Shown here in pieces: positions 26,448 through 64,000 of a DNA stretch of 64,000 bases. The position numbers and the translations under genes are program-made. Location of the stretch: positions 1,240,001-1,304,000 of the forward strand of contig NZ_AP019309.1 of NCBI RefSeq assembly GCF_003925875.1. The letters run 5' to 3'. How positions within the stretch are numbered: the first letter of the stretch is position 1; each line of letters starts with the position of its first letter. Below the pieces are notes generated by a model, which searched no databases, was not told the origin of the DNA, and saw only the letters and a list, made by a program, of their open reading frames with translations. The DNA comes from Intestinibaculum porci. Its GTDB lineage: Bacteria; Bacillota_I; Bacilli_A; Erysipelotrichales; Coprobacillaceae.

Positions 26448-26470
26448 GAGCGGTTTATTCCGCTCTTTTT
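26448..26470 (+). terminator. Terminator after tRNA-Ala
   Basis: GAGCGG (26448-26453) and CCGCTC (26460-26465), 6-base loop, T5 tail. Confidence 0.85.
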
Positions 26471-26560
26471 GTTTTCCTTGTTTTATTTTTGTAAAGTGCT
26501 TTGTTTTTGTAATGATAATAATGCAAAAGTGGTAAAATAAAGACATCAGGAGGAAATATC

Positions 26561-27316: not shown

Positions 27317-27318
27317 TC

Positions 27319-27348
27319 AATCAGGATCTATGATCCTGATTATTTTTT
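27319..27348 (+). terminator. Terminator after the YD-repeat secreted gene
   Basis: AATCAGGATC (27319-27328) and GATCCTGATT (27332-27341), three-base loop, T7 tail nearby. Confidence 0.9.
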
Positions 27349-27415
27349 TAAGATGTATTGCTTTTTTATTGTATTGAAATATATATGGTAAAATAGCAGT
27401 AAAGAGGTGAGGGCA

Positions 27416-28309: not shown

Positions 28310-28320
28310 GAGGGGATAAG

Positions 28321-29094: not shown

Positions 29095-29116
29095 GGATGA
29101 GCCCATCCTCACTTTT
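29091..29116 (+). terminator. Terminator after the tandem secreted-protein genes
   Basis: GTGAGGATG (29091-29099) with CATCCTCAC (29104-29112), loop of 4, T4 tail. Confidence 0.85.
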
Positions 29117-29197
29117 AAAAACATCTTTTTTGAGTAAGATTGTAGGCAATTGAATAGGAAGCGTGTATAATAATACCATTACACAAGGAGGATTTGC

Positions 29198-45420: not shown

Positions 45421-45465
45421 GTGTTTTATGATATGATAGAGCGGATGAACAAGGAGATGAGGTAC

Positions 45466-46125
45466 ATGAATAAGACATTTTCCGTCACTGTTGATTTTGA
45501 TCAGCTGGTTGAGGATCACGATCGTAATGGGAATATTGGCTATCTTTATTTAAGGGAATGTTACAAAAGATTAGAAGTGACAGCATTTCTAAAGAAGTAT
45601 CAATTGAATGCAGAGTTATTTGCGTTTTTTGTCTATACCGATGTTATTGACGACTTACAAAACCTTCAGGAGATTTATCATTATCGCCGGCATTATCTTC
45701 ATGGACCGCAGTTCACGACTGATGATCTTGGGGAACTTGAATATGGTTTCACAGAACATCGGAAAGAGTATCTGATGTATTTACAAAAACGAATGATCGT
45801 ACTTTATCCAAAATCAAAAGACAATATCATCAAAGTATTTAAAGAATATCGTCGTGCCTCGGATTTACTACCCTTACTGGAAATTACGAAACGCTGTGTC
45901 ATCACAGTCTTATACGAAGATATAAATAAAGGTCGTTACTACTTTAATAATGCACAGTTGAGAACGACACTACGTGATATGTCGGTGATCAATATCAATG
46001 ATCAATATTATCAGGCTGGTTATGAAAACTCATATGTTTTAAAAGCATTAGAGGATACTTATCATTTAGGTTTGAATAAACGCTATTATACGATTGAGGA
46101 AATGCATGCTAAACTTAAAAGGTAA
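45466..46125 (+). CDS. IS1634-like transposase derivative lacking the catalytic core (copy 1)
   Basis: 219 aa from ATG 45466 (GGAG upstream). It is homologous to the protein at 46574-47425 in two blocks: GNIGYLYLRECYKRLEV with the following helices, and the C-terminal AQLRTTLRDMSVININ...VLKALEDTYHLGLNKRYY. Both blocks resemble the regions flanking the DDE domain in IS1634-family transposases. No DDE catalytic residues or RNase H-like core lie between. It also lacks the N-terminal KVTYNKKxKDP segment of copy 2. The ORF is intact, so a decayed or repurposed fragment. Not mobile by itself. Confidence 0.55.
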   Translation: MNKTFSVTVDFDQLVEDHDRNGNIGYLYLRECYKRLEVTAFLKKYQLNAELFAFFVYTDVIDDLQNLQEIYHYRRHYLHGPQFTTDDLGELEYGFTEHRKEYLMYLQKRMIVLYPKSKDNIIKVFKEYRRASDLLPLLEITKRCVITVLYEDINKGRYYFNNAQLRTTLRDMSVININDQYYQAGYENSYVLKALEDTYHLGLNKRYYTIEEMHAKLKR

Positions 46126-46135
46126 GCATAATCAT

Positions 46136-46540
46136 ATGAAGAAACAGATCATGATCCTGATTTTGCTTGGCAATATTTCACTGATTTATGTTAGAGCGGA
46201 GCTTTTTCTTTATCAGGATCAACATCTCATGGGCAAACGACGTATCCACATAATGAAGCGGGGACATATAGGAACTTGATGTTTGGGATGATCGATCTGA
46301 TGAAAAATAAAGAAGACCTCAAAAATGCATAGGAAGTTCAAATGCTTTGCTAATCCTTTTGGAGATGAGAAAGACTGGAGTACGTCTGATGTAAAGATAT
46401 GAGAAAGTTGTTTAACCCCAAAGCTATGGCAAGAAAAGATATTTGTTAGTGAGAATCAATGGTATGAAGATGAGAAATGACAAAAGGTCAATAAGGGGCT
46501 TTTGGAAAGAACGGACATTGGTGATATAAGAGGAAAAACT
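46136..46540 (+). pseudogene. Decayed secreted-protein gene with frameshifts
   Basis: A signal-peptide-like start MKKQIMILILLGNISLIYV (ATG 46136) continues in another frame as SGSTSHGQTTYPHNEAGTY and RNLMFGMIDLMKNKEDLKN (to a TAG at 46330-46332), then in a third frame as HRKFKCFANPFGDEKDWSTS. The pieces read like one protein with at least two frameshifts and later stop codons. The gene family is not recognised. It lies between the two transposase derivatives. Confidence 0.5.
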
Positions 46541-46573
46541 ATTATGAGAAGATATTAATGATTGGAGAGAAAT

Positions 46574-47425
46574 ATGAAGGTCACTTACAATAAAAAAGCA
46601 AAAGATCCCACTTATTATATTCAGGAAAGCTATCGTAATAAAGATGGTAAGTCTACAACCAGAACGGTAAAAATATTAGGGAAACATTCAGCGTTACTTA
46701 AGATGACGGATGATCCTTTAGCTTATGCACAAGAAATAGCGAAAAAGATGACGGAAGAAAAGAAAGAAACGATCACTTATACGATTGATCCAAATCAAAA
46801 GGTAGAATGGAGTGAGTATTCAGGTATAAGAAGGATTGGTTCTCTTTATTTACGGATCATTTTTGATCGTTTACAGCTTGATCAGTTCTTAGTATCGATT
46901 GGTGATCATCATGTACAAAAGAGCATAAATGTTCTTGAACTATTGGTTTACAATATGGTGTTTTATGATGATCCTTATGATCATTTCAAAGATAACTTTG
47001 GAAGTGTGCGCATTGATGATCAGGATGTGTTGATGCTTCAGAATATGTTAGATCCACATTATGGGGAGTTTATTAATTATGTAAAGAAACAGGCTTCATT
47101 ATTAGCTGGGAAGCATCCTATAAAGCGTATCTTTGATCATTTCTCTTTGACGTTTTCTATGTCAGACATATATCGATTGATCGCTCAGGTGATCGTAAGA
47201 CTTTTAAAGTATGATTTAGAAGATCATGGGTATTCGTTTAAAGAATCTGATCTGATCAAGACCCTTGATCAGTTACAGGTATATCATCGCACGAAGCAGA
47301 TTTATCAAGCGATGTATCAGGGAAATCATGTTTTAAGAGCATTAGAAGAGACGTATCACTTAGGTTTAGATTATGAATATTATTTAGAAAGTGACTTGAT
47401 GGAGAAAATGAAAAGACCAGAATAA
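46574..47425 (+). CDS. IS1634-like transposase derivative lacking the catalytic core (copy 2)
   Basis: 283 aa from ATG 46574 (GGAGAG at 46564-46569). The N-terminus MKVTYNKKAKDPTYYIQESY and KILGKHSALLKMTDDPLAYA is the standard start of IS1634-type transposases. RIGSLYLRIIFDRLQLDQFL follows. The C-terminus (DLIKTLDQLQVYHRTKQIY, LRALEETYHLGLDYEYY) matches their tail. The roughly 250-residue DDE core expected between them is missing: the whole protein is about half the usual length. The frame is open and has a ribosome binding site. No terminal inverted repeats were identified. Confidence 0.6.
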   Translation: MKVTYNKKAKDPTYYIQESYRNKDGKSTTRTVKILGKHSALLKMTDDPLAYAQEIAKKMTEEKKETITYTIDPNQKVEWSEYSGIRRIGSLYLRIIFDRLQLDQFLVSIGDHHVQKSINVLELLVYNMVFYDDPYDHFKDNFGSVRIDDQDVLMLQNMLDPHYGEFINYVKKQASLLAGKHPIKRIFDHFSLTFSMSDIYRLIAQVIVRLLKYDLEDHGYSFKESDLIKTLDQLQVYHRTKQIYQAMYQGNHVLRALEETYHLGLDYEYYLESDLMEKMKRPE

Positions 47426-48532: not shown

Positions 48533-51500
48533 ATGGCGAAAATGATAGATCAGAAGCTCCCAACAAATAAAGGTGAACAAATAGTATGGGATTTTCTGAA
48601 AAATTTATTATCTGATGACATTATTGTTTATCATAATAGGGAAGTCAAGGGGAGAGAATTTGATTTTTGTTTATTATTGCCTGATCAAGGAATATTAATC
48701 CTTGAAGTGAAAGGGTGGGAAGCTAAAGGAATTCGAGTTAAAGACCCTGATCAAATAATAATACCAGGATATGGTACTGAAGGTTCTCCAAAGAAACAAG
48801 CGAATATGTACAAGTTTTCTATGATTGAAAAAATAAAGAATTCATTTGGAAAATCACCGCTTGTTTTATCAATGGTTGTCTATCCATTTATAGATTATGA
48901 AGGATTTTATGATGCTGGATTAAACGTTGTTTCAGAAGTTGAATATACATTATTGAAGGAAGATTTATTGGAGAAGCAAAGATTAATAAATAAGATCAAC
49001 GCCTTATTTACATTAAATCACCATATCAAATATGCACCATTTAATGATAATTTGTTATTTAACGTTAGAAGTTTATTTGAAACAAATATAACAAGGGATA
49101 TTAGTAAGAGTGATCATTTTCATTATTCTGATTTAATGATTACTAAGAATGTATTATCTGAGACAAAATGCCAAAGCTTTATGGACGCTTATTGTCATGG
49201 TGAGAAAAAAATTGTTTTTACAAATAATATAGAAACTTTTGACCAGTTGATTAATTCGTTTGATCATGTTTTAAGAGATCTCAATATTGCTAGAAAAGGT
49301 TTAAATCTAGATTTAGGTTATATAGATTTGAATAAGGAAAATAAAGGTACTATAAGACATTTTTCAGCATTTAATTTTGAATTAATGCTCGTGGATGATC
49401 AGTTAGAGGAAGATGAAAAACACTTTTATGATGGAAATGTTGGCGATCATCTATCAATGTTAAAATCTCTCTCCAAAAGCGGAAATTTTAACATTGAACA
49501 ATATTTACTTGAACATGCTGATGATTCTAAAAACATATTAGTTAGAGCTGGAGCTGGTACTGGAAAAACATATTCAATGGTTTCAAGAATTGCTTTCCTA
49601 TGTAATAAACCAAATTTTCCAATTACAAATTTTTCAGATGAGATTGCCATGGTAACATTTACTAATAAAGCTGCTGATCAGATGAAAACTAGAATCAAAC
49701 AAATGTTCACTAATTATTTTATACTCACAGGAGATGTAAAATATCTACAATTTATTGATGATGTCGATCGGTCTAAAATATCAACAATTCACAAGTTTGC
49801 ACTTAATATATTGAGAGAAGCATCATATTATACAAAACTAGGTTCAGATTTCAGGATCAGCGATAATCAGTATTTACGCAATCAGCTTTATGATAAATAT
49901 CTTAATGAATTTTTTTTAGAAAAAAGCAGTGAAATTGATAACTTTTCTTTAAAAGTCAAAGTGACATCTTATAATTTAAAGAAAAGCTTAATGCAATTAG
50001 CTGATCGTTTATTGACAAAAAATATAGATTTAGAACAGATTCAAATAGATGAACTGGGAGAGCCAAAAATAAAAACAATTCCATTTATTAACGAATTGTT
50101 TATGAAAGTTATTGTGAAAGCAGAAACGGAATATTCTATTGAGAATAAAGAAAGAAATGCGTTAAGTCTTAATGAATGTATTATTTCATTGATGAGGATA
50201 ATGCCAAATAATATTTCAGCAATTAGAAAATTAAGCATCCGCTACTTATTTATTGATGAATTTCAAGATACTGATGATGTTCAAATAGCTTTTTTTCAAC
50301 AATTTCAGCAGTATATTAAAACAGACTTAAAGTTTTTTGTCGTTGGTGATTTAAAGCAGAGTATTTACCGCTTTAGAGGAGCAAAACTAAGCGCTTTCGA
50401 TCAATTGAAACAAAATAAAACAGACTGGTTAGATTTTTATTTAACAATAAATTATCGTAGTGATCGAAGACTTCTGGAAGATTTTGATCAAGTATTTAAA
50501 AGAATGGGAAGAGAAGAATTATTGCCTTATGAAGATGGTGATCGTATTAAAGGAATAAAGACATTTAATAGTTTGGAACATCATCTTCTTAAAAAATATA
50601 GTATTTTTACGAGTGATTATAATTCTTTTTATGATGAACTATTTAAAGTGATTTCTGAAGAGAGGAAAAATATAGTTGAGAATAAAGATCAGATCAGTAT
50701 AAATAATGCAACAATTGCAATACTAGTAAGAACAAATAGGGAAGTTGAAGCAATTATTAAAGAAGGAAGACTAAGGGGCATCTCTGTGGAAACGGACGAT
50801 TCCGGGCATTTATTTCAATTTGATGCAACCATTGATTTATTTAGGTTAGTCAATGCACTTGTACGTGGAAATGATCCAGTTGCATTAACTAATTTTATTG
50901 AATCAAATTATACGAATTTACATCTTAATTACGAAAGACTTCATAATCTTGATTACGGGGATACAAGGAAAGAATTATTGCATATTGTTAATCAGTATTT
51001 GCTTACTTCTTTAGGCCAGACGTGGAATGATATTTTAGCAAAGATTAATACACAGCCGGTTTTAAATGTGTTAAGGGAACTTTTCAATTCTTTAAAACCT
51101 TGGAAAAATTATAGCAACTCAATTACACGGCAGAAAAATTATATTGCAAATTATGAATATTTAATCGAGAGAATGATTCACTACTGTCGCGTTGATGCCA
51201 TTACTTTAATCCGTATTCAGCAATACTTGCAAGTTAATATTACAACTAGACAGTCAGAAAAAGAACGATCTATTAAAACTGAAGATGATCAAAATAAACT
51301 TATTTGTATGACTGTGCATAAAGCAAAGGGGCTAGAGTTTACTACTGTTATTTTGCCATTTACTGATCGATCATTGCGTAATAAACGGCAAATGAAAATT
51401 GAAGCAAATTATAGTCATCATAAGTTAGCTTATTATTTGTCGATCAAGCGAAATAAAGAAGAACCACTTATTGAGTGCAATAACTATTTTCAAGAGGATA

Positions 51501-51640
51501 TCGAATTTCAGGAACAGGCGGAAGAAGAATCCAGAATTCTTTATGTGGCATTAACACGAGCAATTTATAAATGTATCTGGATTGACAGCGGAGAGAATAA
51601 AAAAATGACTTGGGCAACATTATTGGAGGGAGAAGTATGA
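48533..51640 (+). CDS. NERD nuclease fused to UvrD/AddA-like superfamily 1 helicase
   Basis: 1035 aa from ATG 48533 (AAGGAG upstream; the TTG at 48509 precedes the ribosome binding site). Residues about 10-60 form a NERD nuclease: GREFDFCLL near 40-48 and LILEVKGW near 54-61 give the D...ExK triad. The helicase has Walker A RAGAGTGKTYSM near 335-346, VTFTNKAADQM, ISTIHKFALNI, FIDEFQDTDDVQ near 573, VGDLKQSIYRFRGA, NYRSDRRLLEDF, TVHKAKGLEFTTV near 927 and YVALTRAIYK near 1003. The C-terminal RecB-type nuclease of AddA is absent. Its stop overlaps the next start (ATGA), so it is tightly coupled to an AddB-like partner. Predicted to translocate on and cut DNA. Confidence 0.85.
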   Translation: MAKMIDQKLPTNKGEQIVWDFLKNLLSDDIIVYHNREVKGREFDFCLLLPDQGILILEVKGWEAKGIRVKDPDQIIIPGYGTEGSPKKQANMYKFSMIEKIKNSFGKSPLVLSMVVYPFIDYEGFYDAGLNVVSEVEYTLLKEDLLEKQRLINKINALFTLNHHIKYAPFNDNLLFNVRSLFETNITRDISKSDHFHYSDLMITKNVLSETKCQSFMDAYCHGEKKIVFTNNIETFDQLINSFDHVLRDLNIARKGLNLDLGYIDLNKENKGTIRHFSAFNFELMLVDDQLEEDEKHFYDGNVGDHLSMLKSLSKSGNFNIEQYLLEHADDSKNILVRAGAGTGKTYSMVSRIAFLCNKPNFPITNFSDEIAMVTFTNKAADQMKTRIKQMFTNYFILTGDVKYLQFIDDVDRSKISTIHKFALNILREASYYTKLGSDFRISDNQYLRNQLYDKYLNEFFLEKSSEIDNFSLKVKVTSYNLKKSLMQLADRLLTKNIDLEQIQIDELGEPKIKTIPFINELFMKVIVKAETEYSIENKERNALSLNECIISLMRIMPNNISAIRKLSIRYLFIDEFQDTDDVQIAFFQQFQQYIKTDLKFFVVGDLKQSIYRFRGAKLSAFDQLKQNKTDWLDFYLTINYRSDRRLLEDFDQVFKRMGREELLPYEDGDRIKGIKTFNSLEHHLLKKYSIFTSDYNSFYDELFKVISEERKNIVENKDQISINNATIAILVRTNREVEAIIKEGRLRGISVETDDSGHLFQFDATIDLFRLVNALVRGNDPVALTNFIESNYTNLHLNYERLHNLDYGDTRKELLHIVNQYLLTSLGQTWNDILAKINTQPVLNVLRELFNSLKPWKNYSNSITRQKNYIANYEYLIERMIHYCRVDAITLIRIQQYLQVNITTRQSEKERSIKTEDDQNKLICMTVHKAKGLEFTTVILPFTDRSLRNKRQMKIEANYSHHKLAYYLSIKRNKEEPLIECNNYFQEDIEFQEQAEEESRILYVALTRAIYKCIWIDSGENKKMTWATLLEGEV

Positions 51641-54264
51641 GTCTAAAAATTTATACATTTAGCAATCCTAATTATTTAGATCAAGAAGATTTTTGGAATG
51701 AAATAAAAGATGCTCCTTATTTTTGTGTTACTCAAACATTAGTTAATGGTTTGTCTGCAAGATTTTCTAAAGATTTTCCGAAAGGGAGAATAGGAACTTC
51801 ACAAAATCTATTAAATAATTTGTATGAAGATTGGTTGAGTACTTCAAAAATTATTAAGCAGCATACTGATTTAGATAGTATCATTACACAGGAATTATCA
51901 GTTGATTTAGATGCATTTGCTTTTAACCGTGATGATCTATTTAAGAGTATTAGAGTCATGTTTGAATTAGGAATGGAACCTACAGGTATTAATAAAGATC
52001 TTTTAAGTGAAGAACAAAGAATTTTATTTGATATCTTTTGCTGTATTTGTAATTCAAAGAGAATTAATGATTTTAGAATAGATGAGGTGCTTAATGATGA
52101 AGAAATTACTGAGGCGATCGAAAGTGCACTATTGTTGAATGTACCTGATAGAGATTTATCTGATGCAAAGATCGTTAGTTCATCTCTAGATTATAGTAAA
52201 ATTGTCATTCACGGCATTCATCAGTTTAGTCCATTAGCATTACGAATGATTGAAACGCTCTCAGAAATATGCGATGTTTATTTAATTTTTCCTTATCAAG
52301 ATCATTTAAAAAATGTTTATCAAACATGGCTTGATATTTATTCGATTTTCGATTCGCCAATACATTTCTCGGAAAATCCTAGAAAGCCATCGCTAATAAA
52401 TGATAATCACATACTGGGTGATTCTATAGGGAAAATCCTTAATGGACAAATGAGACAGGCTACACTTAATACAAATGTAGAAATTATCGAGTTTAATAAT
52501 ACAACTGAGTTTGCAAATTACGTTGCTGAAAAATTTGAAAAGGCCATAAAAGTAAAAGAATATGCAAAAAAGAAAAGTCAAAGTAGGGGAGAAGCTTTTA
52601 ATAGGAGCACGCTTTCCTATATGGATGAACAGTTTTATTCCGCTGATTTTTCAGTGAATGATGTATTAAAAGTTTATTATCCTGATCAATTTGGAGAGCG
52701 TCATTTTCTTAATTATCCATTAGGGCATTTCTTTTTAGCAATTGCCAATATGTGGGATGAAGAAAATCAGTGTTTACGTATAGATGATTTAAACGATATT
52801 AAAGAATGTTTGCAGTCTCATTTCTTTAGTGAAGATTATTACGGAGAGCTTTGTGAAATATTTACGAAATCTGAAGTTTTATTTTCTTCTCCTATGCCGA
52901 CGACGATTACAAAGATGATTGAAAGAATTGATAAGTTAGAAAAGAGAATAAACAAGAAAAGAGAAGACTGGATTAAAAAAATTGAGTACTGTGATTTATC
53001 TGCAAAAGAAATAGCTAAATTAAGACAGTCTCTCTTAGAGTTGGAAAAAATATCAGAGGAATTCTTTCAGGAATTTGCATCTAAACCACAAAACTTTAAA
53101 TTATTCTATAAAAATGTGCAGGGATATTTAGTTTCGAAGCTTAATAATGAAGATCAGATTGATGACAATTTTAGAGATATTATTGAGCGTGTGGTTCAAC
53201 GCCTGGAAGAAGTAAAAGATATCACAGCATCTGCATCTTTGCGTTGTCTCATTAATACAATGAATTTATATTTAGAACAGAATCCAAAGAAAAACGTAAG
53301 CGCGAACTGGATTGTTCGTAATTTTGAACAAATTGATGGGGATATTTTACTAAATAGTCCGAAAACACTACATTTTGCTTGTTTATCAGATGAAGATATT
53401 AATGCCACGCAAAAGAGAGAATTTCCATGGCCATTAGATGAAGATTTCTTTGAGAGAGCACAAAAGCCAATCGATTGGAAATATCAATGTTATGTTAAGT
53501 CGTGTAAAGAGTATAAAAACTTTAGACGATATGCATTGATTTATGGTCTGCAATATTGTCGAGGAAAGGTAAAACTGAGCTACATAAAGAAGAATGGTGA
53601 TCATGATCGTATTTTATATTATCCATTGCGTTTAATGAAACTTACTGTTAAAAACTTTTATGATTATATTGTAGATGATGAATTAAAAGATGTTTCTAGT
53701 ATCAATTTTGATGAACAAATACAATCAAATTATTCACTTATTGATTATGATCGTTATCATCTCTGTCCTTTTAAATTTGTTCAAGAAACATTAGTAGAAG
53801 GAAATACAATTTATAAAGATGCATTTTTATTAAATAAATATGTAGAAATTGTTCTCAAAGGTAAAGTTATTAATGATGAGAACTATAGAATCTCATTTAA
53901 AAATAGAGATTTAGAAATGTTTAATAAGCAATTAGAAAAAGATTATAAAAGAATGCAAAGGTATTTACCTTTCTTAACTGAATATAATAAATTTGATATT
54001 TTATATGCTGTCATCAATAGTATGAATTATATGAAAAATTTCAACAATGAACTTGAACAAACCTTTTTACGTACAGCATTAAAAGATGAAAAGGGATCAA
54101 ATATATTAAAAAATCAATTTCCACAGTTAAATCAAGATCAAGTGAACGAAAAGTTAAATGATCAAATTTTAGCAGAAGTATTTTATAAACCGCATGTTGG
54201 TAAATGGTGCGAATTTTGTGCTAATAAATTAGTGTGTGTTAATTATTATAAAGATCAAAAATAA
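51637..54264 (+). CDS. AddB-like protein with iron-sulfur cysteines, no visible nuclease motif
   Basis: 875 aa from ATG 51637 (GGAGGGAG upstream), overlapping the helicase by four bases. The C-terminus has YDRYHLCPFKFV (Cys about 710) and CEFCANKLVC (Cys about 858, 861, 867). This spacing, one distant Cys and then CxxCx5C, is the 4Fe-4S signature of AddB-type RecB nucleases. Only about 150 residues separate the first Cys from the triplet, against roughly 320 in AddB, and I find no GxxxH or D...DxK catalytic motif. The N-terminal part has an AddB-like decayed helicase feel (KIVIHGIHQFSPLALRMIE, VYLIFPYQDH) with no Walker A. A coiled-coil stretch is near 425-480. Probably a structural partner. 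Confidence 0.65.
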   Translation: MSLKIYTFSNPNYLDQEDFWNEIKDAPYFCVTQTLVNGLSARFSKDFPKGRIGTSQNLLNNLYEDWLSTSKIIKQHTDLDSIITQELSVDLDAFAFNRDDLFKSIRVMFELGMEPTGINKDLLSEEQRILFDIFCCICNSKRINDFRIDEVLNDEEITEAIESALLLNVPDRDLSDAKIVSSSLDYSKIVIHGIHQFSPLALRMIETLSEICDVYLIFPYQDHLKNVYQTWLDIYSIFDSPIHFSENPRKPSLINDNHILGDSIGKILNGQMRQATLNTNVEIIEFNNTTEFANYVAEKFEKAIKVKEYAKKKSQSRGEAFNRSTLSYMDEQFYSADFSVNDVLKVYYPDQFGERHFLNYPLGHFFLAIANMWDEENQCLRIDDLNDIKECLQSHFFSEDYYGELCEIFTKSEVLFSSPMPTTITKMIERIDKLEKRINKKREDWIKKIEYCDLSAKEIAKLRQSLLELEKISEEFFQEFASKPQNFKLFYKNVQGYLVSKLNNEDQIDDNFRDIIERVVQRLEEVKDITASASLRCLINTMNLYLEQNPKKNVSANWIVRNFEQIDGDILLNSPKTLHFACLSDEDINATQKREFPWPLDEDFFERAQKPIDWKYQCYVKSCKEYKNFRRYALIYGLQYCRGKVKLSYIKKNGDHDRILYYPLRLMKLTVKNFYDYIVDDELKDVSSINFDEQIQSNYSLIDYDRYHLCPFKFVQETLVEGNTIYKDAFLLNKYVEIVLKGKVINDENYRISFKNRDLEMFNKQLEKDYKRMQRYLPFLTEYNKFDILYAVINSMNYMKNFNNELEQTFLRTALKDEKGSNILKNQFPQLNQDQVNEKLNDQILAEVFYKPHVGKWCEFCANKLVCVNYYKDQK

Positions 54265-54393: not shown

Positions 54394-57300
54394 ATGAAGA
54401 GTAAAATGTATGTTAGGTGTCCAGCTGATTATGAAGATGAACTACATCCCCGCATTTTTGTTTGCGCTCAGATTTTAGCTGTAGATGATTTTGCGGAGAC
54501 TGTAACAGTCAAAATTCATGATCCAAGTGGATATTTAGAATATTTTGATGAATTACCTTCGGATATCCAAGTATATCCAAAATCTCAAGTAAATAGATGT
54601 ACTTTTTTTAATAATTCAGAGGTCTTTGTTGGCAAAAAAGCATATGATGTGATCTGTAAGAAAAAAGAAAAAGACGAAGAAGGATATTATTACTATTATT
54701 TGCAAAATAAATCAGATAAAAGTATTAGCTGTGTATGTGAAAAAGACATAATTGCTGGATTTAACAATGGTCGAGTTTCCCCAAGACGTCAGCTTTTAAA
54801 TTATGAATTTCAAAATCCAGTTTGGTATGTTGGACGTTACGCTGTTTCAAAAAATGTCAATATATTGCATAATGCGATGTACGGTTTTGATGAATTAGCA
54901 GGGTCAAAGATTTATTTATTACCGCATCAGGTAAATACAATTATGAGATGCTTACAGGATGAGAAATGTCGCTATATGTTGGCAGATGAAGTTGGTATGG
55001 GAAAAACAATTGAAGCCATATCAATTTTGAAAGTCTATATGAAAGATCGGAGTCGGCTGAAAATCTTAATTGTTGTTCCTAAGCAGCTGAAAGAGCAGTG
55101 GCATGCAGAACTATTACTTAAATTTAGTATTTCTATAGGGGTAAATAAAAATAATAATCGTGTTTCCTTAATATCTTATGATCAGTTAACGGAAGCAAGA
55201 ATTAATAGGCAATATGATTTTGTGGTAATGGATGAAATTCATCAAGAGATCGCTTCGCCAGGTCATTACAGTCTTGTTCATCAGTTAAGTCACAATACAA
55301 AAAATCTGTTATTGCTAAGTGCAACACCGGTTCAGCAAAAAAGAACAGAATATTTAAATTTATTACGCGTATTAGATCCAGAAAAATATGATCATGTTGG
55401 AAAGTCACAATTTGAAGACTTGGCTGTAAAACAAATGGAGATTGTAGAAAGAACGTCTCTATTACTCGACGACATTTTAGATTTGGAAGAAATTAAGGAA
55501 GAAGTTCTCGAAGAAGGAGGAGATCCACTTGAAAGCGATGAGTGCTTAGAGACATTTGATGACATATTAGATGAAATAAATGAATTCATTGGCATGTTTA
55601 ACGATGATCATTTGAATACTATTGTTGATCATATTGATAAAGAATATGATTTTGGAATTGCTCAAATGAAATTATTGGTTTCATATGTCGCGGATAATTA
55701 TCAAATCGAATCTCACGTTATTCGCAATCGCCGAAAGACGCTGCAAATCATTGCTGAAGAAGAAGGAGAGCCTTCAATTCTTCCTACAAGAAAATTGCAT
55801 GCATTACCTTATAATCTGGACTTGGATCATAATTATGAAGAGAAGGTCGCGTACAATGAATTGATTCAATGGGCAAATAATAGGGTGAAGACGAGTGACA
55901 GTATTTTCTTAGATGTTCTACCTGTTGTTGGAGCTTTTTTCAGTTCTGCGGCAGCCTATCAAGGAAGTGTATGGACATATAATGTAGAAATTCATCAGGA
56001 GCATCTTAATAAATGGATTGAATATGAACAAAAAACTGTAAATATGATAAAAGAAATTATCCAAGATCCAGATGAATATAAAGATTATTACGAGTCTAGA
56101 TTAGTTAAAATTATTAATTATCTATATGAAGAATGTTCAGATAGTAAAGTTGTCCTTTTTACAAACTATAAAGAAACGTTAAATTTATATAAGAAAGCAT
56201 TACTCAATGTATTTGATCAAAGCGAAATTACTTATTTCTATAAAGGTATTGATCCTGAAATATTAGAAGTCAATGTTTATCATTTTCAAACCGATTCACA
56301 CTGTAACATCATGCTTTGTGATCAAACAGGGGGAGAGGGAAGAAATTTCCAGTGTGCTGATTTTGTGATTCATATCGATTTACCTTGGGATGCTAATCAA
56401 ATTGAACAAAGAATAGGTCGATTAGACCGTTTAGAAAGAGATCCTGAAAGATCAGTAGTTACTTCAGTTGTTCCCTATGCACTTGATTCATTTGAAGAAT
56501 CATTATTTCAGTTTTGGAATAATGGGTTAGAAATTTTTACGCACTCATTAAGTGGTATGGAAATTATTATGAATGATATTAACACGAAATTGGTTCATTC
56601 TATTGAGGAGGATTTTGAAACTGGTCTTGCATCTCAAATAGACAGCATTATTAAGGATGTTAAGAGAATGACGAACCAAGTAAATAAAGAGCAAAATTTT
56701 GACAGTGCATCTACAGCATACGCTCCTTTATTTAACAATATTCGAGAACAAATTGAAAACTATAATGAAAATGACTCAAAAATGTTTAGAGAAGCTATGA
56801 CAAGCTGGTCTTCTTTAGCTGGTTTTCATGCACAAGAATGTGGCGAAGATATTATAAAATACACGGACCATGCATTTTCTGTTAGGTCTGCTTTTAAAGC
56901 AATGCTGATTCCTCCTAATTGGAGTGATTATTTTTTAAATGAGCATAATGCGTTTTTGCGTAAGGTTCAACAAAATGCAAGCTCAATCCGTACAAATGAG
57001 AGAGCAATTAAAGGTACATTTAATAGAAAGATCGCTATTGAAAATGATTATATTCATTTCTTTGCACCAGGTGATGCGATCTATGACTGCATTGTTTCTA
57101 ATGCCATTAATAGTTGTAAAGGAACTTGTTCTGCCATAGAAATAAAAGGAAAATATAATTGGGCTGGTTTTAGATTTATATATAGAATTCTTCCAAATTA
57201 TGAATATCTGCTTGAAAATCATGTTTCTTTACATGAATTTGATTTGTTTAAATCATATGTTAATATGAGTCCAATTGACCATGTGGTATCCTTAATTAAT

Positions 57301-57723
57301 AAGGATCAAATAGATGATATCGATATACGTATAGAATTGAATTCTATACTGACTCTAAAAAATATTAAATCACATTATACCATTAATTATGGAAGAAGAA
57401 GTTCCGGTGATAAAAGCAAAACTTTATCTAATATAGATTGGTTTATCCATACTTTTGGTAAAAACTGGGCTAATGTGGTAAAAACTCTTACAAAGCAATC
57501 AAAAGAGTTTACTTATGAAAAGTACATGAAACAAGCTAATTTGAGTGAAGTAAAAAAAGAGATGGAACGGATTCGAAGAGGAAAAATAGCTAAGAATAAT
57601 TTTTATGATTTAGATGATCAAGATTCGATGGATTTGGAATCGGTTTTTGATATTATTCTAAAAGCTTTAGAAACGCCTCAAATTGAATTGGAATCGGCTT
57701 TATTTGTAAGAATGGAGCAATAA
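54394..57723 (+). CDS. SNF2-family DNA translocase/helicase, DpdE-like
   Basis: 1109 aa; AAGGAG precedes ATG 54394. Two RecA-like lobes are clear: Walker A ADEVGMGKTIEA near 194-205, IVVPKQLKEQWHAE, DEIH near 279, LLLSATPVQQ near 307-316, then VVLFTNYKE, CDQTGGEGRNFQCADF near 641 and QIEQRIGRLDRLERD near 668. A long C-terminal region (about 750-1109) has no recognisable domain. SNF2 proteins move along double-stranded DNA without unwinding it. The next gene starts directly after its stop. With the following genes it matches the dpdE-F-G-H order, as I recall it. DISARM DrmD is another possible relative. Confidence 0.75.
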   Translation: MKSKMYVRCPADYEDELHPRIFVCAQILAVDDFAETVTVKIHDPSGYLEYFDELPSDIQVYPKSQVNRCTFFNNSEVFVGKKAYDVICKKKEKDEEGYYYYYLQNKSDKSISCVCEKDIIAGFNNGRVSPRRQLLNYEFQNPVWYVGRYAVSKNVNILHNAMYGFDELAGSKIYLLPHQVNTIMRCLQDEKCRYMLADEVGMGKTIEAISILKVYMKDRSRLKILIVVPKQLKEQWHAELLLKFSISIGVNKNNNRVSLISYDQLTEARINRQYDFVVMDEIHQEIASPGHYSLVHQLSHNTKNLLLLSATPVQQKRTEYLNLLRVLDPEKYDHVGKSQFEDLAVKQMEIVERTSLLLDDILDLEEIKEEVLEEGGDPLESDECLETFDDILDEINEFIGMFNDDHLNTIVDHIDKEYDFGIAQMKLLVSYVADNYQIESHVIRNRRKTLQIIAEEEGEPSILPTRKLHALPYNLDLDHNYEEKVAYNELIQWANNRVKTSDSIFLDVLPVVGAFFSSAAAYQGSVWTYNVEIHQEHLNKWIEYEQKTVNMIKEIIQDPDEYKDYYESRLVKIINYLYEECSDSKVVLFTNYKETLNLYKKALLNVFDQSEITYFYKGIDPEILEVNVYHFQTDSHCNIMLCDQTGGEGRNFQCADFVIHIDLPWDANQIEQRIGRLDRLERDPERSVVTSVVPYALDSFEESLFQFWNNGLEIFTHSLSGMEIIMNDINTKLVHSIEEDFETGLASQIDSIIKDVKRMTNQVNKEQNFDSASTAYAPLFNNIREQIENYNENDSKMFREAMTSWSSLAGFHAQECGEDIIKYTDHAFSVRSAFKAMLIPPNWSDYFLNEHNAFLRKVQQNASSIRTNERAIKGTFNRKIAIENDYIHFFAPGDAIYDCIVSNAINSCKGTCSAIEIKGKYNWAGFRFIYRILPNYEYLLENHVSLHEFDLFKSYVNMSPIDHVVSLINKDQIDDIDIRIELNSILTLKNIKSHYTINYGRRSSGDKSKTLSNIDWFIHTFGKNWANVVKTLTKQSKEFTYEKYMKQANLSEVKKEMERIRRGKIAKNNFYDLDDQDSMDLESVFDIILKALETPQIELESALFVRMEQ

Positions 57724-60231
57724 GTGAGGATGAGAAATAGAGAGTTAGAAGAACAGGTATCAAAATATTTTAAAGGGGAAATAACCTCTCAAGATATTTT
57801 GTCTTATATTCAAAATTTAAATTTTAAAGATAGCCATCAGCATTTTCTTGCATCGACTGTGAAAAGACTGATATTAATTGCTGAAAAAAGGAAGCAATCC
57901 AATTTATATGATCATGATTTTCTTATTGCATTAAGGGATTATTTACTCGTTTTTAATAATCCCAGACTAGATGGAGATATTATTACAGGATTCGATATTG
58001 AAGACTATGATATTATTGTTCAAGAAGGGCAATGCAGATGTTATTTAGATCAAATTCCAAATGGAATTACGCCTAAATTTATTAAAGATACGTATGCTTT
58101 GACAAGTAAAAAAAGTGAACCTTCTCATAAAGCAAGCTTGATCACAGATAATAAAATTTATGATTTGACTGGGTATAAGTATTTTAAGTCAATACGTCAG
58201 AAAATAGCTGTATATGGTGCATTGAAAACACCAAATGGTTATACAACACTCATTTCACTGCCTACGGGTGGAGGAAAGAGTTTAATAACACAAAGTATTG
58301 CTTATCAAGGTCGTGGCTTAACGATTGTTATAGTGCCTACAGTTTCCTTAGCAATTGATCAGGAGAAAAGTGCAAAAAAGGTTATAAAGAGCGAAAATGC
58401 TGATGAGGAAATTTTTTATTATGCAAGTGGCTTTTCCAAAGATAAACAAGATTTAATTATTTCTTCAATTAAAAACCATACAGCAAAACTTTTGTTTATT
58501 TCTCCTGAAGCATTGCAGAATAATGAAATATTTAAGAATATTGTAAAGACAGCAAATGATCTCAAATACTTAAAAAATATTGTAATTGATGAAGCACATA
58601 TTGTGGTAGATTGGGGAAGAAATTTTCGACCTGAATTTCAATCATTAGAGTCCTGGAGAAACGCTTTGATGTTTGAAAATGAAGAGATTCGAACATTTCT
58701 TCTTTCAGCCACATTTGTAGAGCGTGATACTAAAATTTTGAAAAATCTATTCTCAAATCGAGATAAATGGATTGAAATAAGATGTGATGCATTAAGGCAA
58801 GAACCAAGATTTAATGTTATCAAAAAAAATACTGAAGGTCAAAAGAAAGATTGCATTGTTGAGCTTGTAAAGAAATTACCGCATCCAATGATTATTTATA
58901 CTGATCAGCCTGCTCATGCTGAGCAATATAAAAAGCTGCTAGAGGCACACCAAATAAATAATATCAAAACATTTACTGGTAATACAAAAAATGATGAGAG
59001 AAAGAGACTCATTAATGAGTGGAAAAATGACGAGTTCGAAATCATGATCGCTACTTCAGCGTTTGGTGTTGGAGTTGATAAAAGTGATATTAGAACTGTT
59101 ATTCATACATATGTTCCACAAAACCCTAATGCTTATTATCAGGAGTTAGGACGAGGAGGAAGAGATGGCCTTCCTTGTCTTAGTGTTATGTGTATTACCC
59201 CTAGCAGAGATTTGGCGGATGCTAAAAATAAAATGTTGAGAAGTATTTTAAGCGAAGAAAAAATTTTCCAAAGATGGGATAGTATGTTTAATTCCCCAAA
59301 ATCAAAAAGAATAGGAAATAAAGTTTATATAGATACGTCTATTGTTCCAAATTATGTGGAATCAGATCATAATGATGATTTTTCAAATGAAGGACATGTG
59401 AGATGGAATGTTTACGTTTTATTTTTGTTGAGGCGATGTAATTTAATTTCAATCAACAATGTTATTAAGGATGGTAAAAAATATATATTTACCATAGAAA
59501 TCAACGATGATGTTTTATATGGTCGCAATCAGGTCGAAATAATTGATAAAATGCATCACGCATATAACGAAGAAGCGCAATACTATAATGATTCATTCGC
59601 TGAAATACAGGATCATATTGAAAATGCAGGAAAAGAATGCTGGTCAGAAATGTTCTATAGTACTTACGATTTTGTTGATGAGTATTGTGCAGGCTGTGAT
59701 GAGCATAAAGAAATTATTGATGGAACAAGTAATGAAATTTTAAAGAAGCCTGTCACAAAACCATGTATGTTATTTGGTGCTAATAGATTAAAATGGTTAT
59801 CTGAAAATAGAGAAGCGATAATAATAACATCTGAAATGAATTATGCGCAAATTATTAAAAAGTTCGCAGACCATATTTTTGTAACTGTTGTAATACCTAA
59901 TGATTATTGTAATCAAGAGTTAGAAAGTATGATTAAAGATCAAACGAGAAAAAATATCTTTATCTTACAATTTGATACATTTTATAAACTAATTAAAAAT
60001 GGCTCCTATTTTTTTGTTAGTGGTTTAGTAATTGTTGTATATAATTCGCAAAAAGAAGATCAGATGTATAATTTTTCTTTAGTAAAGAATAATTTATATA
60101 ATATGGAAAATATTAGAATTATACATTTAACAAATGAAGATATGAATGTTAAGAATGCAAAAAAAATGAGTGATTATGTTGATGGTGCGTTGATTGATGA
60201 GAATTCTTTAGGAGATGATATTTATGTTTAA
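57724..60231 (+). CDS. RecQ-like DEAD-box helicase, DpdF-like
   Basis: 835 aa. I kept GTG 57724, because GGAG at 57714-57717 is six bases ahead; ATG 57730 is the alternative. Superfamily 2 motifs: SLPTGGGKSLITQ near 178-190, FISPEALQ, VIDEAHIVVDWGRNFRPEF near 288-306 (RecQ-type motif II/Ia), FLLSATF, TSAFGVGVDKSDIRTVIH near 443 and YYQELGRGGRDG near 472-483. It lacks a clear RecQ zinc/HRDC tail; a CAGCDEHK motif with a later KPC may bind metal near 655-680. The stop of the SNF2 gene immediately precedes it. Predicted 3'-5' DNA helicase acting with the SNF2 motor. Confidence 0.75.
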   Translation: MRMRNRELEEQVSKYFKGEITSQDILSYIQNLNFKDSHQHFLASTVKRLILIAEKRKQSNLYDHDFLIALRDYLLVFNNPRLDGDIITGFDIEDYDIIVQEGQCRCYLDQIPNGITPKFIKDTYALTSKKSEPSHKASLITDNKIYDLTGYKYFKSIRQKIAVYGALKTPNGYTTLISLPTGGGKSLITQSIAYQGRGLTIVIVPTVSLAIDQEKSAKKVIKSENADEEIFYYASGFSKDKQDLIISSIKNHTAKLLFISPEALQNNEIFKNIVKTANDLKYLKNIVIDEAHIVVDWGRNFRPEFQSLESWRNALMFENEEIRTFLLSATFVERDTKILKNLFSNRDKWIEIRCDALRQEPRFNVIKKNTEGQKKDCIVELVKKLPHPMIIYTDQPAHAEQYKKLLEAHQINNIKTFTGNTKNDERKRLINEWKNDEFEIMIATSAFGVGVDKSDIRTVIHTYVPQNPNAYYQELGRGGRDGLPCLSVMCITPSRDLADAKNKMLRSILSEEKIFQRWDSMFNSPKSKRIGNKVYIDTSIVPNYVESDHNDDFSNEGHVRWNVYVLFLLRRCNLISINNVIKDGKKYIFTIEINDDVLYGRNQVEIIDKMHHAYNEEAQYYNDSFAEIQDHIENAGKECWSEMFYSTYDFVDEYCAGCDEHKEIIDGTSNEILKKPVTKPCMLFGANRLKWLSENREAIIITSEMNYAQIIKKFADHIFVTVVIPNDYCNQELESMIKDQTRKNIFILQFDTFYKLIKNGSYFFVSGLVIVVYNSQKEDQMYNFSLVKNNLYNMENIRIIHLTNEDMNVKNAKKMSDYVDGALIDENSLGDDIYV

Positions 60232-61015
60232 AGGAAAAATGGAGACCCCAGCGACACCAGAGCGTGTCTATTATCTGTGTAAACTATTAGAAAATGGTCC
60301 CAAAAACTCAGTTGATTTAAAAAGTAAAATGTTTCCGAAAATTTTAGATCCAAACGGTGATAGTGGTTATTTTGGGAATATTCGTAAAGCAGCTGAAGAA
60401 TTGGAACTCGTGGTTATTGAAGATAATATGATCAAATTACTGGCTCCAACAAATATATTAGTGAGTCAAGAGAGTTTTAGAGAATATATCAATAACTTCA
60501 TATATAATTTAAGTGATGATGAATTTTATGATGTAACAAAAGCTTATTTTACCTTAGGAACGGAAATTATTACAACTGTTAGCAATAATGTTAGTGAGTA
60601 TTCTAAAGTTATTGATAATGCTACAAATCACCGTTATAAGTTAGATAACACAACTCAAAATGCGTGGCGATTTTGGGCTACATATTTAGGCTTTGGTGAT
60701 ATCTTTAAAAACAATATGTTTATACCAAATTGTAAAGTCTTTTTACAGGATTTAATAAATTATTCTGGATTGGAGAAAAATAAGTCATATAGTGCTCAGG
60801 AATTTATTTCAGGATTAGGAAGATCTTTTGATATTTTAGGCAATGAAGGAAATGTAATGAATTATGGTACGACAAATGGTTTACGTTCACTTCATGAATT
60901 AAAGGTGATTAAAATGGAGCATATTCTCGATAATGATAAAGCTATTGTTTTGTATAAAAATAATGATCCTGATCTTAGTGAGAGTATCACAAATATTACT
61001 ATATTGGAGGCATAA
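60224..61015 (+). CDS. Uncharacterised protein, DpdG-like
   Basis: 263 aa from ATG 60224 (GGAG at 60211-60214, spacing 9), overlapping the helicase stop by 8 bases. An ATG at 60215 would be only one base after that GGAG. The N-terminal 70 residues (ATPERVYYLCKLLENGPK, VDLKSKMFPKI, YFGNIRKAAEELELVVIED) look like a winged-helix DNA-binding domain. The rest is helical, with WRFWATYLGFGDIF near 145-158. I recognise no catalytic motif. Position and size fit DpdG of the Dpd restriction set. The function is unknown in the literature I recall. Confidence 0.6.
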   Translation: MFKGKMETPATPERVYYLCKLLENGPKNSVDLKSKMFPKILDPNGDSGYFGNIRKAAEELELVVIEDNMIKLLAPTNILVSQESFREYINNFIYNLSDDEFYDVTKAYFTLGTEIITTVSNNVSEYSKVIDNATNHRYKLDNTTQNAWRFWATYLGFGDIFKNNMFIPNCKVFLQDLINYSGLEKNKSYSAQEFISGLGRSFDILGNEGNVMNYGTTNGLRSLHELKVIKMEHILDNDKAIVLYKNNDPDLSESITNITILEA

Positions 61016-61018
61016 TTG

Positions 61019-64000
61019 ATGAATTCAAAAATTGCAAAAGCAAGGCTAAATGCCATTGTTAAACCAGATGCGAACAATACGGCTATTGAAGATTTCTTTG
61101 CAACACATGTGCCATTAAAGCATCTACAGGTTGTTGATCAATTTTCTTTGGCACCTCCTGTTGGAAATTTTAGAGACGAAATTGAGATTTTTGAGGATTA
61201 TGTGAAAAATCCTGAAAACAAGCATCAAATGATTGTCGTATATGGGCAATCAGGAACTGGAAAATCTCATTTGATCAGATGGTTTAAAGAAATGTTAGTT
61301 AATGAACAGCTTGATCATGAGGTTATTCTTTACATTTCACGAAGTGACAATACGTTGAAGGGTACAATTAAGCAACTTTTGCAAAAAGAAGAGCTTAGAA
61401 ATATTGAAGGAAATGAAGAACTTTACAAAAAGCTTAGAAGTGCATCTGAATTTGTTGATGAAAAGAAATTAAAGGATCAAATATATTATCAGTTTGTAGT
61501 TGAAGTTCAGAATGATCATTCCATCAATTCTGTGAAACAAAGAAAGATTGCTGCATTTTTAAAAGATGATCGTATAAAAGATTATTTACTTCGGCCAAAA
61601 GGACCATTAGAAAGAATCTATTCCAAAATTGACGAAAGAGAGACAATTGTTGATCTTGATGTTAAGGCAGAATTTTATCCAGAGGATTTTTATATTGATT
61701 CAGAGCTTTATCAAAAAATTGATCAATATGGAGACCTTAGTGCAAAACGCTTAACCAAAAAATTGTATTCGGATGTCAGCCGTGAAAAAGAAGCTCGTGC
61801 ATTGTCAAAATATCTTAATGGTTTTGTTGAAGAAGTTATTCAGCACACAACCAATATCGAGCCTGGAGATATTGAACAAATTTTTACGAATATTAGACAT
61901 CAGTTATTCACTCAAAATAAAAATTTAACGATATTTATTGAAGATATTACTTCTTTTACTGGCGTTGATAAATCATTGCTTAATGCTCTACTAAGAGAAA
62001 ATGAAGGTGAAGATGAAAAAGAAGAAATATGTCGTATTTCGTCTATTATTGGAAGTACGACGTCGTTTATTCAGGATAAGTTTTTAGATAATCATAAGGA
62101 CCGTGTTTCTACTTATATTTATATTCCTGATAATCAGTTTGATCAAAAACAATTGTTTGAATTTGTTGGACGATATGTGAACGCGATGTCATTAACAAAA
62201 GAGAGATTAAAAGAATGGGTATCAGCAGGGGCACATCCTGAAGATTATCCAGTTCATGAGTGTATAGAAGGAAAAAACTGGGATTATATTATTTCTGATG
62301 ATCATAAGTTGCCACTTTATCCTTTTAGTAAAAATGCAATCGTTAATTTATACGATACACAGCTTAGAGAAGGTGCAAAGACACCTAGATATATTATAAG
62401 AGACATTATTGAGCCTGTAGCTCGAGAAGCTTTAGAAACGCCAGCTATGTTTCCTTCTGAACGTTTCATTTATAGAAAACAGAATGTTGATGTTAATACA
62501 ATCCTTGACAGAAGAATAGGTGATGATATTTCGAAGCTTGATCGCTTAAAACGATTCATTTATATTTGGGGTAATGGAAAAGCAGATAAGTATGTACAAA
62601 ATGATATTCAATACATTTCAGGAATTCCTGAAGAAGAATATCAATTATTTGATTTGCCAGTGTTGGATTTAAAAGAATCAAAAGCCGTATTAGAAGAAGA
62701 AATACCTGATGTGAGCGATGACTTTGTTGAAGCGCATAAAGTTGAGAAAAAAGTAATATCTGAAAAATCTGCGAATATTTTTGAGATCACTTTAGAACAA
62801 GAAAAGAATTTAAAAGAAGTCGAAGAATTATTAGGTGAGTGGCTGCTGGGAAGAATTCTCCTCCCTAAGGGGAATGTTGGTGCAGGAAAGTATATTAATA
62901 ATGCGAGATCTGACATTAATTCTTATTTATTAGAAACAATTGATTGGCAATTGTACAATGTTTCAATGGATAATGTAAGAAAAATAAAAGACTCAAGTAA
63001 TGGCTTAATAAAGTTTGCTGGAGAAGATAAAGGGAAACCTGCTCTTTATACCATTCCTATTTCGAATAATGCAGTTCGTTTAATTATGGCTTTTATAAGA
63101 TGGAATTACCTTGGGAAAAAAGAAAATTTTAATTACTATAACGGAATTGAAGATGCTTATACAATTACAAATTGGAAACGTACTGTAGAAAAAGATATTG
63201 TCCATGCAGCTGAATTTATTGATGATCAAGAAGTTCACTATATTGATGCTGCTATTTCAATGAAAATTTTAAACCAAGCATTATTTAATTCAGTTAACAT
63301 AAAAAATATCCAAAATTATAATTTTGATATGATGTATAAAGCACTTTCGATGTCATCTCATGTTCAACATGCTAAAAAATGGAATGAAGTTGAAAACATG
63401 CTTATCAATGATAAGTTAGATGCTGAGAGTATTGATGCAACAGTCAAGCGCTACTTTAACTTAGAACAAGGGAATTCATCGCGTGTATTTGTTATAAAAT
63501 ATCTTGAAGCCACTAAAGCTTTAAAGAATATGAAAAAGAAAAAACTCTTAGTTGATCCATATTCGATTCCTAATGATATTATTAAAAAAAGAAAAGAAAT
63601 TTATGATCAATATACTAAATACTTTGACAGACTTGAGGCAATTTTAGATGATGAAATGAACAATCTTTTGCCTATAAAAAATGATTGTGAAAATTATTTG
63701 CAGGAATTAGATATTGAGGATGATGAGGATTTTGATGATTTTACAAATGACGTTTCTGATTTCTATGATTATGCAAATAGTTTACGCTTTAACATTAGGT
63801 TTTCAGCAACTGAAATAAGTGATGATATTAAAAAAATCTTAGATGCAGTAGAAAGAGTGAACGCTGCTGAAAAAGAAGATGCAGTGATTAATAAAATTTT
63901 GTTATTAAATAAACCTACAATAGAATATTTAAGTGAGTTACAAGAATATTTTCAAAATATAGGAAGAGATGTGCAAATTGCTGAAGGAGAATTAAACAGA
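61019..64000 (+). CDS. Large P-loop ATPase, DpdH-like (partial at window end)
   Basis: Open for 994 codons from ATG 61019 to the window edge without a stop. GGAGG precedes the start, three bases after the previous stop. Walker A is VVYGQSGTGKSHLIRW near 73-88 and Walker B LTIFIEDITSFTG near 301-313, followed by an ISSIIGSTTSFIQD sensor-like block. Downstream is a long region with a helical segment near 580-610 and acidic stretches, without known domains. This is the STAND/AAA-like layout seen in DpdH and in BREX-type ATPases. It may sense DNA or drive the other island proteins. The C-terminus and any following genes are out of view. Confidence 0.65.
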   Translation, partial: MNSKIAKARLNAIVKPDANNTAIEDFFATHVPLKHLQVVDQFSLAPPVGNFRDEIEIFEDYVKNPENKHQMIVVYGQSGTGKSHLIRWFKEMLVNEQLDHEVILYISRSDNTLKGTIKQLLQKEELRNIEGNEELYKKLRSASEFVDEKKLKDQIYYQFVVEVQNDHSINSVKQRKIAAFLKDDRIKDYLLRPKGPLERIYSKIDERETIVDLDVKAEFYPEDFYIDSELYQKIDQYGDLSAKRLTKKLYSDVSREKEARALSKYLNGFVEEVIQHTTNIEPGDIEQIFTNIRHQLFTQNKNLTIFIEDITSFTGVDKSLLNALLRENEGEDEKEEICRISSIIGSTTSFIQDKFLDNHKDRVSTYIYIPDNQFDQKQLFEFVGRYVNAMSLTKERLKEWVSAGAHPEDYPVHECIEGKNWDYIISDDHKLPLYPFSKNAIVNLYDTQLREGAKTPRYIIRDIIEPVAREALETPAMFPSERFIYRKQNVDVNTILDRRIGDDISKLDRLKRFIYIWGNGKADKYVQNDIQYISGIPEEEYQLFDLPVLDLKESKAVLEEEIPDVSDDFVEAHKVEKKVISEKSANIFEITLEQEKNLKEVEELLGEWLLGRILLPKGNVGAGKYINNARSDINSYLLETIDWQLYNVSMDNVRKIKDSSNGLIKFAGEDKGKPALYTIPISNNAVRLIMAFIRWNYLGKKENFNYYNGIEDAYTITNWKRTVEKDIVHAAEFIDDQEVHYIDAAISMKILNQALFNSVNIKNIQNYNFDMMYKALSMSSHVQHAKKWNEVENMLINDKLDAESIDATVKRYFNLEQGNSSRVFVIKYLEATKALKNMKKKKLLVDPYSIPNDIIKKRKEIYDQYTKYFDRLEAILDDEMNNLLPIKNDCENYLQELDIEDDEDFDDFTNDVSDFYDYANSLRFNIRFSATEISDDIKKILDAVERVNAAEKEDAVINKILLLNKPTIEYLSELQEYFQNIGRDVQIAEGELNR

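What the first reader, a model, noticed from the sequence alone, without database searches (positions are those of the whole stretch)
48533..54264. AddAB-like pair with the nuclease moved to an N-terminal NERD domain
Gene 1 has the SF1 helicase motifs of AddA but no C-terminal RecB nuclease; it instead starts with a NERD domain carrying a D...ExK triad. Gene 2, coupled by an ATGA overlap, has the AddB iron-sulfur signature. This looks like a re-wired AddAB heterodimer in which DNA cleavage is done from the opposite end of the motor chain.
Basis: partly seen in the sequence, partly recalled or inferred. Interest (0 to 1): 0.78.

Follow-up and report, generated by a model that had tools for sequence, protein, structure and literature searches.

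The report
Phosphorothioate-linked Dpd/AddAB-like restriction cassette
The two genes are real and look like a DNA-degrading motor whose cutting domain sits at the opposite end of the chain, but they are only the first two genes of a larger, apparently undescribed cassette against invading DNA that some gut bacteria have paired with sulfur marking of their own DNA.

Summary
Gene 1 (48533-51640) is NERD + AddA/RecB-type helicase without a C-terminal nuclease. Gene 2 (51637-54264, ATGA overlap) has the AddB four-cysteine signature. A separate chromosomal addB-addA exists, so this is not the cell's recombination enzyme. Gene 2's own nuclease motif is gone, leaving NERD as the pair's only recognisable nuclease. 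And the pair heads a seven-gene run (NERD-UvrD, AddB-like, DpdE, DpdF, DpdG-like, DpdH, DpdI-like) that leads, past the window, into DptFGH and the DndBCDE-DndA phosphorothioate (PT) operon. Two other genera carry the same seven genes in the same order before Dnd modification genes, without DptF; two more contigs show parts. No DpdA was found in the host, and no full DpdJ in the three genomes tested. Among 315 genomes of the order, all three with full-length DpdH are among the five with DndC (p about 2e-6). Best reading: a Dpd-type restriction module re-paired with PT marking, in which the NERD-AddA/AddB* pair replaces DpdJ/DpdK as motor and nuclease. Nothing has been assayed; gene 2's AddB identity rests on weak profile evidence because structure prediction failed.

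The parts
48533..51640 (+). Gene 1: NERD + AddA/RecB-type SF1 helicase, 1035 aa, no C-terminal nuclease
48566..48886 (+). NERD domain of gene 1 (residues 12-118); D44 at 48662-48664, E58 at 48704-48706, K60 at 48710-48712
   Evidence: PF08378 E 7e-11; residues invariant in window, G636, G654 and L009
49523..51562 (+). SF1 motor core of gene 1 (residues 331-1010); Walker A AGAGTGKT, DEFQD, YVALTR
51637..51640 (+). ATGA overlap that couples gene 1 and gene 2
   Evidence: read directly
51637..54264 (+). Gene 2: AddB-like protein, 875 aa, with iron-sulfur type cysteines and no RecB-family nuclease motif
53764..54237 (+). Cysteine region of gene 2: C710, C858, C861, C867; the nuclease motif normally lying between them is missing
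54394..57723 (+). DpdE (SNF2-type helicase)
   Evidence: NF041062 E 6e-114, 382 bits, below its curated cut-off of 500
57724..60231 (+). DpdF (RecQ-like helicase)
   Evidence: NF041063 E 4e-144, 482 bits, below its curated cut-off of 550
60224..61015 (+). DpdG-like protein
   Evidence: NF041064 E 3.5e-4, weak; place in the operon; 42% identity to the G636 copy
61016..64000 (+). DpdH (AAA-type ATPase); continues past the window to G000:C1:1304132
   Evidence: NF041065 E 7e-79, 266 bits, below its curated cut-off of 450

Best explanation
The pair is the motor-nuclease arm of a seven-gene restriction cassette (NERD-AddA, AddB*, DpdE, F, G, H, I) that works together with phosphorothioate (PT) marking of host DNA by DndA-C-D-E. 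Proposed steps: (1) Dnd proteins put sulfur marks on host DNA (known for the family; inferred here from gene content). (2) DpdE-I, the helicase/ATPase set that in canonical Dpd systems is the presumptive restriction part, here tells marked from unmarked DNA (inferred; the sensing part is not identified). (3) The AddA-like motor with its AddB-like partner loads on unmarked DNA and translocates (inferred from intact motor motifs). (4) NERD, at the N-terminus of the motor, cuts that DNA (inferred; it is the only recognisable nuclease in the seven genes, because the AddB-like nuclease motif is lost, the AddA-type nuclease is missing and DpdJ/K/D are not at the locus). In G636 and G654 the cassette stands in for DptFGH; in the window genome it lies beside DptFGH.
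For: Same seven genes in the same order before Dnd modification genes in three genera, with DpdH-DpdI-DndB on a fourth contig and gene 1-gene 2-DpdE-DpdF on a fifth. Gene 2 to DpdE spacing is 2-12 bp in relatives, so the pair and Dpd genes look like one operon. All 3 of 315 genomes with full-length DpdH are among the 5 with DndC, p 1.9e-6. DptF is absent from the whole genomes of G636 and G654. DpdJ gives only short helicase-level matches in the three genomes; the host has a single, tRNA-type TGT, hence no DpdA found. NERD triad invariant; gene 2 nuclease motif absent. Trees group the cassette copies of DpdF and DpdH. A Paenibacillus plasmid carries a full Dpd island next to another AddB-like/UvrD pair.
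Against: No experiment. Only four or five loci, all from one bacterial order. Defence genes cluster anyway, so neighbourhood is not proof of joint function. The host also has DptFGH, which could be the sole PT-linked restriction module there. No PT-sensing domain was recognised in the cassette. Related AddB*/UvrD pairs without NERD exist, so NERD may be dispensable for the pair's core role. In G654 gene 1 is split by a frameshift. Dpd matches lie below the curated equivalog cut-offs.
Confidence: 0.58

Rival explanations
1. Stand-alone re-wired AddAB nuclease: the two genes form a self-sufficient ATP-dependent nuclease and the Dpd and Dnd genes beside them are separate systems.
For: Translational coupling of the two genes; AddA as closest solved relative; similar pairs without Dpd neighbours on Geobacillus and Exiguobacterium plasmids.
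Against: In the three complete loci and in L006 the pair always precedes DpdE, with 2-12 bp spacing in the relatives; no copy outside this context was found among 196 genomes of the order.
Confidence: 0.15
2. The seven-gene cassette is a PT-independent defence system that merely travels with Dnd on the same islands.
For: Defence islands collect unrelated systems; the window island also has DptFGH, an HNH gene and further defence-like genes.
Against: All three genomes with full-length DpdH carry DndC, p 1.9e-6; order and direction are the same in three genera; two of the genomes have Dnd modification genes but no DptF.
Confidence: 0.17
3. NERD is a back-up or suicide nuclease that attacks cell DNA when the main restriction fails, and the main effector is DpdE-I or DptFGH.
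For: This role has been proposed for NERD domains in DndF and PglW (PMC10853773; PMC12839542).
Against: No other nuclease is recognisable in the cassette, and G636 and G654 have no DptF.
Confidence: 0.09
4. The pair is simply the cell's recombination enzyme, AddAB.
For: Resemblance of gene 1 to AddA.
Against: A separate addB-addA operon with intact nuclease motifs lies at G000:C1:2812695-2818849; the pair lies in a low-G+C island, 0.28-0.32 against about 0.39.
Confidence: 0.01

Closest known systems
AddAB (RexAB) helicase-nuclease
   Same: Two coupled genes; AddA-type SF1 motor; partner with the AddB four-cysteine pattern and collinear, weak profile similarity
   Different: No C-terminal nuclease on gene 1; no nuclease motif in gene 2; NERD at the N-terminus of the motor; gene order helicase first; extra to a chromosomal AddAB
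Dpd (7-deazaguanine in DNA) restriction operon dpdD-K
   Same: DpdE, DpdF, weak DpdG, DpdH and a DpdI-like gene in the canonical order
   Different: DpdJ, DpdK and DpdD are not at the locus and DpdA was not found in the host; the modification genes beside it are Dnd
Dnd phosphorothioation with DndFGH/DptFGH
   Same: DndBCDE-DndA, and in the window genome also DptFGH
   Different: In G636 and G654 the restriction part is the seven-gene cassette and DptF is absent
PbeABCD and DndI, other PT-paired restriction modules (PMC6459918, PMC11662687)
   Same: A restriction part other than DndFGH next to Dnd modification genes
   Different: PbeA is described as PLD + helicase and DndI as an HNH nickase; neither resembles this cassette in make-up
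NERD+UvrD model C3a187 of PADLOC
   Same: NERD in front of a UvrD helicase
   Different: Gene 1's match to that model, E 9.5e-12, covers only the NERD part (residues 12-97); the model describes a single protein of 559 positions

Membership tests
AddAB | AddA-type SF1 motor | tested here: met
   Best solved relative AddA, E 1.6e-53; below NCBIfam equivalog cut-offs for AddA and RecB
AddAB | RecB-family nuclease at the C-terminus of AddA | tested here: not met
   Frame ends about 25 residues after UvrD_C
AddAB | AddB nuclease motif (D...(D/E)xK) | tested here: not met
   Absent from gene 2, no conserved counterpart in seven homologues
AddAB | AddB four-cysteine iron-sulfur pattern | tested here: met
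AddAB | AddB fold | tested here: inconclusive
   AlphaFold2 failed, pLDDT 33; profile score 34.8 against 11.3-25.2 for 30 shuffles, but formal probability only 5%
NERD domain | Pfam NERD over cut-off, with D and ExK | tested here: met
   43 bits against cut-off 22.1; triad invariant
Dpd system | DpdE, F, G, H in order | tested here: met
   DpdG weak; all scores below curated equivalog cut-offs
Dpd system | DpdA transglycosylase and 7-deazaguanine synthesis | tested here: not met
   One TGT in the host, tRNA type, far from the island; none in the fetched flanks of G636 and G654
Dpd system | DpdJ, DpdK, DpdD | tested here: not met
   No full DpdJ in three genomes; K and D not seen at the three loci, not searched genome-wide
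Dnd phosphorothioation | DndC, D, E and a cysteine desulfurase | tested here: met
Dnd phosphorothioation | PT present in host DNA and restriction that depends on it | not testable with these tools
   Needs DNA chemistry and phage assays

The most novel reading that the evidence does not exclude
A new type of phosphorothioate-dependent restriction system: Dpd-type restriction genes have changed the DNA mark they read, from 7-deazaguanine to phosphorothioate, and use a NERD-AddA/AddB* motor, with the nuclease at the opposite end from AddAB, as effector in place of DpdJ/DpdK and of DptFGH.
Probability: 0.5. Interest if true: 0.82.

Novelty: new variant of a known kind. Interest (0 to 1): 0.7.

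Why it matters
If right, a whole restriction module has been re-coupled from a base modification (7-deazaguanine) to a backbone modification (phosphorothioate). The discrimination logic of DpdE-H would then not be tied to one chemical mark, and comparing the two kinds would make the open question of how Dpd restriction works directly testable. It would also be a natural AddAB derivative in which both RecB-family nucleases are gone and a NERD nuclease sits at the other end of the motor.

Tried and rejected
A DpdF search of 392 genomes was uninformative because it catches ordinary RecQ helicases. Viral contigs gave no relatives of gene 2. Searches for gene 2 in class, phylum and family samples found only the window, since the other carriers were not drawn. 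A solved-structure search with the gene 2 profile found nothing meaningful. The recombination-enzyme reading was rejected because chromosomal addB-addA is present. L006 as a naturally NERD-less copy was rejected in favour of 5' truncation, since the frame opens just after a transposase region. Promoter and terminator scans gave no more than chance, and no tRNA lies nearby in the window. Literature searches for DpdE with phosphorothioate, NERD with RecQ and phosphorothioate, and AddAB-like defence found no description; that library holds open-licence papers only.

Full report
OBSERVATION. Gene 1 runs 48533-51640; the ATG start is supported because homologues begin with the same MAKMIDQK. It carries NERD (PF08378, E 7e-11, residues 12-118), UvrD_N and UvrD_C, and stops about 25 residues after the last helicase domain. 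A five-member profile of gene 1 finds B. subtilis AddA as the best solved relative (E 1.6e-53), then UvrD/Rep and RecB. NERD residues D44, E58, K60 and Q89 are invariant in the window, G636, G654 and L009. Gene 2 begins in the ATGA overlap and has C710 and C858-x2-C861-x5-C867; all eight homologues keep CxxCx5C and an upstream cysteine.

GENE 2. No family library recognises gene 2 itself. Other members of its alignment weakly match PDDEXK_1 (best E 0.0029), Exonuc_V_gamma (0.038) and TIGR03623 (0.0007). A profile comparison with 13 AddB sequences from the host and its relatives scores 34.8; thirty column-shuffled controls gave 11.3-25.2 and the reversed profile 18.3. The alignment is collinear: it joins the gene 2 motif IVIHGIHQFSP to its AddB counterpart, the first cysteine to the cysteine of AddB YNKCPF, and the last three cysteines to those of AddB. 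The formal probability is nevertheless only 5%, and AlphaFold2 failed (pLDDT 33 with a two-row alignment). I therefore call gene 2 AddB-like. The nuclease motif of the chromosomal AddB (GMIDR...IIDYKS) is absent from the region between the cysteines of gene 2 and has no conserved counterpart in its homologues. The pair thus has one recognisable nuclease, NERD.

NOT THE CELL'S RECOMBINATION ENZYME. The host has an ordinary addB-addA operon (L005:4695-10849) with intact motifs. The pair lies in a stretch of 0.28-0.32 G+C against about 0.39 in the rest of the window.

CONTEXT. Downstream on the same strand lie DpdE (E 6e-114), DpdF (4e-144), a weak DpdG (3.5e-4), DpdH (7e-79) and a 219-aa gene in the DpdI place. 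Then, beyond the window, come DptF, DptG, DptH, DndB, DndC, DndD, DndE, DndA and an HNH gene. The Dpd scores lie below NCBI's equivalog cut-offs, so these are diverged members. Canonical Dpd restriction operons read E-F-G-H-(I)-J-K-D. The host has one TGT only, of the tRNA kind, so DpdA was not found.

CONSERVATION. A search of 315 genomes of the order for DpdH found two further full-length copies. Both loci read NERD-UvrD, AddB-like, DpdE, F, G, H, I and then Dnd modification genes: dndBCDE-dndA in G636, dndCDE-dndA in G654. No DptFGH lies between, and DptF is absent from both whole genomes. DpdJ gives only short helicase-level matches in the three genomes. A short contig of G557 reads DpdH-DpdI-DndB. 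L006 reads a 5'-truncated gene 1, AddB-like, DpdE, DpdF. DndC over its cut-off occurs in 5 of the 315 genomes, and all three genomes with full-length DpdH are among them (hypergeometric p 1.9e-6). This p assumes that the genomes, one per species, are independent draws. Trees of DpdF and DpdH join the cassette copies in supported groups, with window and G636 as sisters; the DpdE tree leaves the deeper branching open. The nearest copy with dpdA nearby is that of a Paenibacillus plasmid.

RELATED PAIRS ELSEWHERE. That Paenibacillus plasmid has a full Dpd island followed by an AddB-like gene and a UvrD gene without NERD. Pairs without NERD also lie on a Geobacillus plasmid and, with a different N-terminal extension, on an Exiguobacterium plasmid. 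The AddA/AddB* pair is thus a movable module, and NERD is one of several N-terminal states; but NERD is encoded at every complete copy of the PT-linked cassette (in G654 split from the motor by a frameshift).

MECHANISM. Shown: gene content, order, motif conservation, absence of another recognisable nuclease in the seven genes, and genomic association with Dnd. Inferred: that DpdE-I tell PT-marked from unmarked DNA, that the pair translocates, that NERD cuts, and that the whole acts in defence. Rivals: a stand-alone nuclease, a PT-independent system that travels with Dnd, and NERD as a back-up suicide domain.

LITERATURE. A reappraisal of Dnd neighbourhoods (PMC10853773) mentions NERD nucleases at Dnd borders and in DndF, but its text has no Dpd, UvrD or RecQ. 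A 2026 survey (PMC12839542) describes a BREX/HerA/Dpd composite with TGT, and its text has no AddA, AddB, UvrD or RecB. Dpd islands are described as dpdA-C for synthesis and dpdD-K for restriction (PMC11888242). Known PT-linked restriction modules include DndFGH, DndI and PbeABCD. Searches for the combination found nothing. The library is open-licence only, so this does not prove novelty.

VERDICT. Observation confirmed; interpretation partly supported and extended. New variant of a known kind: a Dpd-type restriction set with a NERD-bearing AddAB-like motor, coupled to phosphorothioation.

Noticed in passing
L041:1-30351 and L046 (Paenibacillus sp. 37 plasmid pART37): A full Dpd island with dpdA, queCDE and two dpdJ genes is followed by an AddB-like gene (25277-28120, no nuclease motif) and a NERD-less UvrD gene (28117-30351), in the reverse gene order.
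   Followed up: partly
L004:11825-19744 (G000:C1:1331825-1339744): A second defence-like cluster downstream: a dynamin-like GTPase and a HerA-like ATPase. By eye the ATPase resembles the one beside the AddAB-like pair of the Exiguobacterium plasmid (L010:20970-23912).
   Followed up: no
L010:13119-14000: The Exiguobacterium UvrD of an AddAB-like pair has an unrelated N-terminal extension of about 300 aa with no Pfam match, where the window copy has NERD; possibly another swapped head domain.
   Followed up: partly
L009:607-8363 (MT836883, called a phage): NERD-UvrD and AddB-like pair preceded by what looks like a WYL-type regulator gene; the AddB-like frame goes on past the cysteines into a long tail with a coiled-coil-like part and runs off the contig.
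   Followed up: partly
L069:9214-9376 (G654): NERD and UvrD parts of gene 1 are in different frames, with the break at an A-rich run in the linker; decay, assembly error or frameshift cannot be told apart.
   Followed up: partly
L068:8700-11393 (G636, after dndA): A DncV-like nucleotidyltransferase gene and a ThiF-type gene follow the Dnd operon directly, as in some CBASS loci.
   Followed up: partly
window 45421-47425: Two short ORFs with similar C-termini, perhaps transposase remnants, just outside the low-G+C island.
   Followed up: no
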